Source: Syntrophus sp. (in: bacteria) (GTDB lineage Bacteria > Desulfobacterota > Syntrophorhabdia > Syntrophorhabdales > Syntrophorhabdaceae). Taken from it: DNA of 64,000 bases. The notes beneath the pieces were generated by a model that had not been told where the DNA came from, did not search any database, and worked only from the letters and a program-made list of their open reading frames with translations. The stretch covers positions 62,001 to 126,000 of the forward strand of contig PNOF01000001.1 of NCBI GenBank assembly GCA_013824645.1, given 5' to 3'. Each line of letters starts with the position of its first letter. Position 1 is the first letter of the stretch. Positions 16,057 through 29,386 of the stretch are shown in pieces. A program made the position numbers and the translations under genes.

Positions 16057-16208
16057 CGATACCTTCTCCCATCGTATGCCCTGTTTTTCGTGTTTTGTCT
16101 TCTTTTTTCTGTCCTTCTCATACCGCTGTCCTTTTTTGATATTCTCAAACCAATATATTACCCAACATATGTCCTAATTGCCACATGAAATGAACTAAAT
16201 CATCTGTA

Positions 16209-16318
16209 ATTCCATTTTTAAATCAAAGATGATATTGAGGCGGCAAGGAGGAGGAAACCGGAGCATACAACACGTATGTGAGGATTTACGACGACGCTGC
16301 CAACAAAGATAGCGCTTT
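16209..16318. repeat. Left part of long palindromic repeat (interrupted by IS110-type element)
   Basis: attccatttttaaatcaaagatgatattgaggcgg...gataagcgcttt-type sequence, closely similar to 29262-29386; right remnant at 17842-17860. Confidence 0.85.
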
Positions 16319-16374
16319 CCCCTGAAAATAAACCTCCTTAATGCATATTACCGTCCTTTTTTTGTAAGATGTGG

Positions 16375-16510
16375 AATTGCCGGTTAGGATTGTAAGAATT
16401 TCCCCTGCGTGCTCTTGGCAACAATGTTTTGTCCCTATAACCGGCTGAGGTCAGTTTGATTTACGGGGTCTTCACCACCAGTAGGCGTCGACCTTTTTCC
16501 ACATAGTCTC
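16375..16510 (-). ncRNA. Candidate bridge RNA of the IS110/IS1111-type element
   Basis: Non-coding region downstream of transposase; two potential stem-loops (about 16448-16494 and 16379-16445) whose loops hold short matches to target flank and IS end. Confidence 0.5.
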
Positions 16511-16514
16511 TGTT

Positions 16515-17624
16515 TTACGCTGCTTCGTTCGCTGTTACGGTAAATCCAAGACCGGTAAGTTTCTTTATATAGTTCCTGATGGTACGGTCCTTTTTGTGTT
16601 TGTCGAGATAGTCCGGCCCCAGCTCTTTGCAGGGCACCTTGTATTTCAGTATATGGTAACACATGATGAGTATTTTATGCCCTACAGCGACGAGGGCCCT
16701 TTTCTTACCCCTTCTCCCCACAAGACTCTGGTATTTTGACCGAAGATAGGTGCCTTTCATCCGTGATGCCACCCATGCAAACTCCGTGAGGACACTCTTT
16801 AAACATTTATTTCCCTGTGTGGTGGTTCCCGGTTTCTTCTTTCCTGCGCTTTCGTTGTTGCCGGGACTCATCCCCGCCCAGGATGCAAGGTGCCTCTCCG
16901 TAGGGAAGAGATCCATATTCACCCCCATTTCCGCGATGATTACGGAGGCGCTGTTTTGTACGGATGGTATTGTTTTCAAAAGATCGTATTCTTCCTTGTA
17001 GTGGGACTCGATTATCTCCTGTATCCGTTGTTCCAGTGCGGTAAGAATCGCTTCGGTTGCCTTCATGTGACCTAAAGATGCACGGATCATGAACGTATGA
17101 TGTTCTTCTATATGTCCCACAAGGGCTTCTGTGAGTTCCTCTTTTCTTCTGCGCAACCTGCCCTTGCTCAATTCCGCCATCACCTCTGTGTTCCGGTTAC
17201 CCTTCATCAGTTCTTCAATGATTATAATCCCGCTTACCCCGAATATATCAGAGACAACGGAGGAGAGCTTTATATTGGCATCCTCAAGGATCTTCTCTAT
17301 CCGTTGTTTCTCGGAAGCAACGGTCTGAATAAGTTTTTTCTTGTACCGGGTGAGATCCCTAAGCTCCCGTATTTCTTTCGGAGGGATGAAACTCCCCGTA
17401 ATCAGCCCGCTTCGTAAGAGTTTGCAAAGCCACTCGCTGTCCTTCACGTCAGTCTTTCTTCCCGGTACGTTCTTGACGTGCCGCGCATTGACCAGCATCA
17501 CTTCGAAGGTGTCCTCCAGTATGTTGAATATGGGCTTCCAGTAGACTCCGGTGCTCTCCATAGCAACATGAGTAATGCCACGTTCCTTTAGCCATTGTTT
17601 AAGCCGTATAAGGTCATTGGTCAT
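16515..17624 (-). pseudogene. IS110-family transposase, main frame (N-terminus frameshifted)
   Basis: GVYWKPIFN..., SVQNSASVIIAEMG, LASWAGMSPGNNESAGK; N-terminal LDVHKETVVASV lies in another frame at 17647-17733. Confidence 0.85.
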
Positions 17625-17841
17625 GGTGGTGAAGGTTTTCGTCTCCTTATTTTATGCCTGTTCCCATGACGGACGCGACTACCGTTTCTTTGTGCACATC
17701 AAGGCCGGCTGCCCTTTCAATGATTATGTCCATGATATCCCTCCTTATTGTTGTAATAGATACATGAATATTCTTACAATAAAAAGAGGGGCCTCGTACG
17801 ATATTTTCATTCTTATTTGTGCCGACAAGTCGGCATGGGTG

Positions 17842-17860
17842 TTTGATTTAGAAATGGAAT
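17842..17860. repeat. Right remnant of palindromic repeat interrupted by the IS
   Basis: tttgatttagaaatggaat. Confidence 0.85.
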
Positions 17861-18007
17861 AAGTTTATATTAAGCCGATTAAACGTGACAGGTAAATGAG
17901 TAGAAATGTGCGTAGTTATAAATTACTGTTTTTGATGTAGGAACATTCAGACAGGCCGCAACACCGGAAAGGTATTCCGGACATTGCGCGCTGTCATGAT
18001 AGAGGCC

Positions 18008-24798: not shown

Positions 24799-25294
24799 TG
24801 TAATACCAAGGGTTTACACGTATTCCATAAAAACATCCTGTGACTACTCGGTGACTATTTTGCGCTGCTCTATCGCCGCAGAACCGCGAAACTCCTGGAA
24901 AATACCGCTTTTATTATCCAAAGGCTCACTCCGGTCTGTATCCAAACATTTCTCCTCAGTGATATGCGGTTATCAGATAATTGTGAAATCATCTGGCAGA
25001 TCGTTACATTATTTTAAAGAAATTATAGGGTCGATGGTAAATAGCAGGGTGGTTCGGGGGGGGTGCAAATGACATCTACGAAGCAATAAATCATTACTAA
25101 ACGGAAAACGTTGATTACCACTTGAAACACCCATGCCGACACGTCGGCACAAATAATGTTTAAAATCTGCTGGCGTAGCAAGCGGTCAGCTGGATTGACT
25201 TTTTAGACAATAATAATTTTTGTTCATCTCATGTCTTGTGTCGGCACCAGCCATTTGCTGTTTCCAGGTGTATCGTCATGGATTTTTGGTATTT

Positions 25295-29261: not shown

Positions 29262-29386
29262 ATTCCATTTCTAATTCAAGGATGATATTGAGGCGGGAAG
29301 GAGGAGGAAACCGGAGCGTACACCAGTACGTGAGGATTTATGACGACGCTGCCAACAAAGATAGCGCCTTGAATTAGAAATGGAAT
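29262..29386. repeat. 125-bp long-form palindromic repeat (MITE/REP-like)
   Basis: Perfect 20-bp termini attccatttctaattcaagg/ccttgaattagaaatggaat; central gcgtac-gtacgt hairpin. Confidence 0.9.

What the first reader, a model, noticed from the sequence alone, without database searches (positions are those of the whole stretch)
16375..16510. Candidate bridge RNA with matches to both target flank and IS end
Downstream of the transposase stop (16515) a non-coding stretch can form two stem-loops on the minus strand: aggtc...gacct (about 16448-16494) and gccggttatagg...cctaaccggc (16379-16445). The first loop contains taaatcaaac (plus-strand gtttgattta, 16454-16463), identical to the 10 bp at the element/target junction 17841-17850. 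The second loop contains caggggaaa (plus-strand tttcccctg, 16399-16407), identical to the other junction 16316-16324. IS110-family bridge RNAs carry separate target-binding and donor-binding loops, and in IS1111-type elements the ncRNA lies downstream of the transposase. The order (target loop 5', donor loop 3') fits. The second half of each guide was not identified.
Basis: partly seen in the sequence, partly recalled or inferred. Interest (0 to 1): 0.82.

Follow-up and report, generated by a model that had tools for sequence, protein, structure and literature searches.

The report
Guide RNA of a jumping gene
Next to a damaged bacterial jumping gene lies the gene for a small folded RNA whose loops spell out both the insertion site and the element's own end; comparison with dozens of relatives shows that these loops change together with the sites, so it is almost certainly a 'bridge' guide RNA of a recently discovered kind.

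Summary
The finding holds up. Window 16376-16495 (minus strand) encodes a two-loop RNA downstream of an IS110-family transposase. Both loop/junction identities are exact (10 and 9 nt), and shuffled RNAs never gave both (0 of 20,000). A covariance model of the RNA matches at nearly every related element examined (90 hits over 94 sources). Its helices covary. Guides match their own element's flanks far better than other elements' flanks: left-target, left-donor and right-target guides all pass permutation tests. Uninterrupted insertion sites exist in the same genome. The IS sits inside the terminal inverted repeat of an abundant ~130-bp MITE-like repeat, and single-base differences between relatives' guides follow the MITE variants of their genomes. 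Corrections: this copy's transposase has a frameshift that removes its first catalytic Asp, so it is probably not autonomous; the transposase is longer than typical IS1111 members. In the wider clade the RNA lies downstream in one half and upstream in the other, a single change on the transposase tree, with the same guide order. This is a new member of the known bridge RNA/seekRNA kind. No transcript or activity was tested.

The parts
16319..17844 (-). IS110-family insertion sequence, about 1,526 bp (boundaries +/- 3 bp because of the AAA core)
   Evidence: uninterrupted target copies in the same genome and relatives; homologous copies; coordinates checked
16515..17733 (-). transposase gene, frameshifted: the N-terminal part from 17733 stops after about 28 codons, the rest is open as 16515-17624 (369 aa); intact ~404-aa relatives exist
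   Evidence: NF033542 'IS110 family RNA-guided transposase' above cut-off, PF01548 and PF02371; alignment
16376..16495 (-). predicted bridge RNA (seekRNA), downstream of the transposase
   Evidence: covariance model R1, 125.3 bits (a member of the training set); model also hits dozens of elements not used to build it
16448..16494 (-). target-binding stem-loop: outer stem AGGTC/GACCT, inner stem CTGGTGG/CCCCG
   Evidence: (helices 1 and 2)
16482..16489 (-). right-target guide (RTG) GACGCCTA; reverse complement AGGCG pairs with the top strand of the target's right side
   Evidence: fixed-offset permutation test on relatives; majority MITE variant reads AAGGCGC
16454..16463 (-). left-target guide (LTG) TAAATCAAAC
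   Evidence: identical to 17841-17850; permutation test on relatives
16379..16445 (-). donor-binding stem-loop closed by GCCGGTT/AACCGGC
   Evidence: six of eight pairs in this helix with changes on both sides
16399..16407 (-). left-donor guide (LDG) CAGGGGAAA, equal to the IS right end plus core
   Evidence: identical to 16316-16324; permutation test on relatives
16419..16427 (-). putative right-donor guide ACATTGTTG (reverse complement contains AACA; LE reads AACAC); not confirmed
   Evidence: position by analogy; covariation not significant
17842..17850 (-). left target TAAATC plus core AAA at the LE junction
16312..16318 (-). core AAA plus right target GCGC at the RE junction
16323..16330 (+). 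subterminal inverted repeat TGAAAATA (right end)
17802..17809 (+). subterminal inverted repeat TATTTTCA (left end), about 33 bp inside
17820..17835 (.). left-end hairpin TGCCGAC AA GTCGGCA, between the end and the subterminal repeat; a comparable palindrome in many relatives
16207..16318 (+). host MITE-like repeat, long part (target of the IS)
   Evidence: 39 matches in own genome; uninterrupted copies
17842..17862 (+). host MITE-like repeat, terminal inverted repeat cut off by the IS

Best explanation
The stretch encodes the bridge RNA of an IS110-family insertion sequence in IS1111-like arrangement. Inferred mechanism: the RNA is made together with or downstream of the transposase mRNA and binds the recombinase. 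One internal loop pairs with both strands of the target (RTG with the top strand of AAGGCG, LTG with the bottom strand of TAAATCAA). The second loop pairs with the joined IS ends (LDG with CAGGGGAA at the right end, probably an RDG with AACAC at the left end). Recombination then takes place at the shared AA core, without a target duplication other than the core. Shown: the element, its ends, uninterrupted target sites, conserved RNA structure, and covariation of three of the four guides with flanks and ends. Inferred: transcription, RNP formation, pairing, strand exchange, and the RDG. The natural target of this subfamily is the terminal inverted repeat of an abundant MITE-like repeat, which gives it many similar sites. 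This copy has a frameshifted transposase that lacks the first catalytic Asp, so it could act only with enzyme supplied by another copy, unless the frameshift is a sequencing error.
For: Exact 10- and 9-nt identities at the right places. RNA covariation. Model hits at nearly all related elements, including dozens not used for building. LTG against own left flank: sum of matches 246 against 213.9 +/- 3.7 permuted (28 elements, RNA downstream) and 243 against 194.1 +/- 4.1 (28 elements, RNA upstream), beyond the maximum of 20,000 permutations both times. LDG against own right end: 246 against 211.3 +/- 3.9 and 240 against 193.1 +/- 4.5. RTG at fixed offset: p = 0.00015 and 0 of 20,000. Uninterrupted target copies in own genome and two relatives. 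LTG TAACTCAAAC of relative L081 matches the GAGTTAG variant common in its genome, while TAAATCAAAC in the window and G004 matches GATTTAG. Guide order, RTG 5' of LTG, as in IS1111 seekRNAs (PMC11187229).
Against: No transcript or biochemical data. RDG covariation is not significant, and the window's RDG differs from the close relatives (ATTGTT instead of GTGTT). MFE folding of the window copy alone is unremarkable and places the first stem differently. The transposase is frameshifted. Related elements are not independent, so permutation p values overstate certainty, although identical guides were removed.
Confidence: 0.93

Rival explanations
1. The matches are chance or a by-product of A/T-rich, repeated sequence: the MITE inverted repeat and IS ends happen to share short words with a non-functional spacer.
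For: A 10-nt match alone arises in 0.33% and a 9-nt match in 0.87% of shuffled RNAs; AAATCAAA also occurs at the other MITE end.
Against: Both together 0 of 20,000; the loops change with the flanks across tens of elements from several phyla; compensatory pairs.
Confidence: 0.02
2. It is a conserved non-guide RNA of the IS, for example a terminator or antisense regulator of the transposase, whose loops copied IS-end sequence during transposition.
For: It lies directly downstream of the transposase stop; the donor-like word is also an IS-end word.
Against: The target words belong to the flanking DNA, not to the IS, and covary with it; the same RNA lies upstream of the gene in the sister clade, where a terminator role is hard to imagine.
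Confidence: 0.03
3. A real bridge RNA locus (compatible with the best explanation), but this copy is a decayed relic with no present activity.
For: Frameshift removing the LDVHK motif; RDG changed relative to close copies; single copy in the genome.
Against: RNA, LTG, LDG, ends and flanks are otherwise intact; a single-base frameshift in a draft genome of 128 contigs may be an assembly error; trans-complementation is possible.
Confidence: 0.5

Closest known systems
IS1111-group seekRNA (ISEc11, ISKpn4, ISPa11; PMC11187229)
   Same: noncoding region downstream of the transposase, subterminal inverted repeats, top-strand match 5' of bottom-strand match in one RNA
   Different: transposase ~404 aa instead of 330-350; hairpin between left end and subterminal repeat; a separate donor-binding loop with a covarying left-donor guide; target is a MITE-like inverted repeat
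IS110 bridge RNA of IS621 (PMC11208160, PMC11208158)
   Same: separate target and donor loops, guides for both target sides, overlap at a core dinucleotide; homologous recombinase (8wt6, E 7.9e-20)
   Different: RNA downstream instead of upstream in this element; target half-guides in the order RTG-LTG
IS4321/IS5075 (IS1111 family; cited in the reference list of PMC11208160)
   Same: an IS of this superfamily that inserts into the terminal inverted repeats of another mobile element (Tn21 family)
   Different: the target here is a short MITE-like repeat with tens of copies per genome
IS1111-related MITEs of Coxiella (PMC5896051, title and abstract only)
   Same: short non-autonomous repeats linked to this IS superfamily
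   Different: here ~57-85-bp left-end plus right-end mini-elements in the same genome and relatives; no functional link shown

Membership tests
IS110 family (DEDD recombinase plus serine domain) | transposase matches the family models | tested here: met
   PF01548 8.7e-23, PF02371 6.8e-18; NF033542 238.8 bits against a cut-off of 140; IS621 structure chain 7.9e-20
IS110 family (DEDD recombinase plus serine domain) | all four acidic catalytic residues in one open frame (a test of whether this copy is intact, not of ancestry) | tested here: not met
   window copy frameshifted before the second motif, first Asp out of frame; intact in relatives L079-L081
bridge RNA / seekRNA | conserved two-loop RNA next to the recombinase gene | tested here: met
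bridge RNA / seekRNA | guides matching both sides of the target, covarying with it | tested here: met
   LTG, RTG
bridge RNA / seekRNA | guides matching both donor ends, covarying with them | tested here: inconclusive
   LDG met; RDG not significant
bridge RNA / seekRNA | RNA expressed and bound by the recombinase, required for transposition | not testable with these tools
   no expression or biochemical data
IS1111 group | subterminal inverted repeats of 7-17 bp | tested here: met
   8 bp TGAAAATA/TATTTTCA; criterion from PMC11208160
IS1111 group | long noncoding region downstream of the transposase | tested here: met
   RNA at 16376-16495, stop at 16515 on the minus strand
IS1111 group | top-strand guide 5' of bottom-strand guide | tested here: met
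IS1111 group | transposase of 330-350 aa | tested here: not met
   about 404 aa in intact relatives (range)
IS1111 group | transposase clusters with IS1111 reference sequences | not tested
   no labelled IS1111 reference transposases were aligned

The most novel reading that the evidence does not exclude
This IS clade shows natural reprogramming at single-base resolution: guides in sister copies follow the variants of a host MITE-like repeat genome by genome. Across the clade the same RNA moved once from one side of the transposase gene to the other while keeping its IS1111-like guide order, so RNA position and guide order, reported to go together, are separable. Sister elements are programmed to start codons and rebuild the start codon with their right end.
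Probability: 0.45. Interest if true: 0.62.

Novelty: new member of a known kind. Interest (0 to 1): 0.5.

Why it matters
It adds a well-supported bridge RNA family, reaching from Thermodesulfobacteriota and Bacteroidota to Bacillota, Chloroflexota, Acidobacteriota and Planctomycetota, with a working covariance model where Rfam gave no match at its gathering thresholds. The clade has a clean natural experiment: one change of RNA position on the tree, several target classes (MITE inverted repeats, start codons), and close copies whose guides differ by single bases along with their targets. That makes the rules of guide-target matching and of natural retargeting directly testable, and offers candidate orthologues for programmable recombination.

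Tried and rejected
(a) First I took 17804-17859 for host sequence because it occurs without a transposase in the own genome and relatives. This was rejected: a comparable hairpin left end is found in copies with unrelated flanks in G240, G184, G399 and in the genome contigs relatives; the solo copies are IS-end derivatives. (b) Rfam at gathering thresholds gave only tRNAs. (c) viral contigs gave no relative. (d) RDG covariation at offsets -3 to +3 was not convincing (best nominal p 0.044). (e) Single-sequence folding is weak for the window copy. (g) An exact-pattern search for mini-elements found only two; the tolerant search found more.

Full report
OBSERVATION. On the minus strand, the sense of the transposase, the stretch reads AAGGTC GACGCCTA CTGGTGG TGAAGA CCCCG TAAATCAAAC TGACCTCA GCCGGTTATAGGGACAAAACATTGTTGCCAAGAGCACG CAGGGGAAA TTCTTACAATCCTAACCGGC. 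TAAATCAAAC recurs exactly at the left-end junction (17841-17850) and CAGGGGAAA exactly at the right-end junction (16316-16324). In 20,000 dinucleotide shuffles, 66 reached the first, 174 the second and none both.

THE ELEMENT. The gene is an IS110-family transposase (PF01548, PF02371; NF033542 'RNA-guided transposase'; IS621 structure chain). The window copy carries a frameshift about 28 codons in: the N-terminal part with LDVHK is out of frame, while relatives at 80-81% identity (L005, L006, L022) are intact at about 404 aa. It is the only copy in its genome.

ENDS AND TARGET. Copies of the target without the IS are abundant. The flanks belong to a ~130-bp MITE-like repeat with inverted ends TTATTCCATTTCTAAATCAA (39 matches in the own genome, some partial). 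Uninterrupted copies read ...AAAGATAGCGCCTTGATTTAGAAATGGAATTA (e.g. L228, L240, own genome, with small variants in L231, L234, L237, L243; others in G004 and G011). In the window the same sequence is split: GATAGCGCTTT-CCCCTGAAAATA...(IS)...GGCATGGGTG-TTTGATTTAGAAATGG. In the sense of the transposase: target TAAATC-AA-GGCGC, left end after the core CACCCATGCC, right end CAGGGG before the core. Comparison with GCGCCTT-type sites interrupted in G004 (L238, L080) shows that the shared core is AA, because the target's own GG follows it there. The palindrome TGCCGAC/GTCGGCA is not host sequence: a comparable hairpin left end occurs in copies with unrelated flanks.

THE RNA. Fourteen homologous stretches were aligned (A6). 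With a hand-written structure, 99.6% of cells pair, 7 pairs have changes on both sides, and the covariation score exceeds all 500 shuffles and all slid controls. The variable columns are the sides of the two internal loops. The model built from these 14 (R1) gave 90 hits with E up to 0.01 over 94 sources, mostly within ~200 bp of the transposase and on its strand, including many elements that were not used to build it.

GUIDE-FLANK COVARIATION. For each element the guide was taken from fixed model positions and compared with the element's own flank and with the flanks of other elements. LTG against the region upstream of the left end: 246 matches against 213.9 +/- 3.7 permuted (28 distinct guides, RNA downstream) and 243 against 194.1 +/- 4.1 (28, RNA upstream); the largest of 20,000 permutations were 228 and 212. 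In most cases the best place lies directly before the conserved NNNCAT of the left end. LDG against the right end: 246 against 211.3 +/- 3.9, and 240 against 193.1 +/- 4.5. RTG, at a fixed offset behind the LDG match: p = 0.00015 and 0 of 20,000. RDG: not significant at any offset worth naming. The rows are related by descent, so p values are optimistic; identical guides were removed.

A NATURAL SINGLE-BASE TEST. The window and G004 copies have LTG TAAATCAAA and RTG CGCCT; the G011 copy has TAACTCAAA and CGCTT. In G011 the MITE right end commonly reads GGCTTTGAGTTAG (six of its listed hits), that is CTAACTCAAAGCC, which fits both changes; in the own genome it commonly reads GCGCCTTGATTTAG. The actual insertion site of the G011 copy is a GAATTAG variant with one mismatch. 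This rests on three genomes and was not tested statistically.

MECHANISM. By homology with the described systems (PMC11208160, PMC11208158, PMC11187229) the RNA is expected to bind the recombinase, to pair one loop with both target strands and the other with the joined ends, and to direct exchange at AA. The order RTG 5' of LTG is that reported for IS1111 seekRNAs. Transcription, binding and recombination are inferred.

THE WIDER CLADE. On a tree of 72 transposases the position of the RNA, downstream (28 rows) or upstream (44 rows), needs one change only. PMC11208160 already noted that RNA position follows the phylogeny. What is added here is that one covariance model covers both positions and that the guide order is the same in both, although PMC11187229 reports reversed order for IS110-type elements, whose RNA is usually upstream. 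Whether such elements are among those already drawn in the literature was not checked exhaustively.

START CODONS. Nineteen of 30 elements with the RNA downstream end with NTG-AAA at the right junction, and 11 of these open a frame of 60 codons or more exactly there, against 4 of 60 control frames; none of 30 in the upstream clade has NTG there. Several are recognisable genes (class-V aminotransferase, rRNA adenine dimethylase, DivIC, rhodanese). Left junctions of such elements often read ATG-AAA-N3-NCA-TGA. So these sister elements appear to be programmed to start codons and to restore the start codon with their right end. The IS900 motif CATGN6TCTCCTT (PMC8141618) looks like a start-codon/ribosome-binding-site target too (my reading), so start-codon targeting as such is probably not new; the window's own subclade has changed to GGGG and a MITE target.

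FILING. Function: bridge RNA, high confidence. Family: IS110 family, met. IS1111 group: arrangement met, transposase length not met, reference phylogeny not tested; so I describe it as IS1111-like in arrangement only.

NOVELTY AND INTEREST. A new member of a known kind. It gains interest from the clean target, the single-base tracking of host repeats, and the wider clade.

Noticed in passing
window 16207-16318 and 17842-17862; also about 29262-29372: MITE-like repeat of ~130 bp with ~20-bp inverted ends and an internal GTAC hairpin, 39 matches in the genome and present in two related genera; its own mobiliser was not identified.
   Followed up: partly
window 25125-25156 (-); L002 1028-1085; L061, L069, L075: Left end, or left plus right end, of this IS without transposase or RNA (about 57-85 bp). 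Several in G010 and the own genome share the flank ATTACCAC(T/A)TGAAAC, a different target from the window IS, as if placed by a differently programmed RNA.
   Followed up: partly
L131, L140, L141, L144, L146, L147, L172, L181, L206 right junctions: Sister elements sit exactly at NTG-AAA start codons of host genes and their right end restores the start codon, in some with a Shine-Dalgarno-like AGAGGT or AAGGAG just inside the IS.
   Followed up: partly
L129-L208, tree: RNA position (upstream or downstream of the transposase) changes once on the tree; guide order is the same on both sides.
   Followed up: partly
L095, L096 (G399 contig 1): A 53-bp left end of a related IS110 element is present in tandem next to full copies, and two copies lie in tandem.
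   Followed up: no
L086 (G204 contig 56): Two tandem IS110 relatives amid several copies of a ~54-bp repeat AACTTTTCAAGACAGTCGCTCATG..., which may be their repeated target.
   Followed up: no
L002 1086-1180: The mini-element in contig 98 directly abuts a sequence resembling the 3' end of a bacterial group II intron (judged by eye).
   Followed up: no
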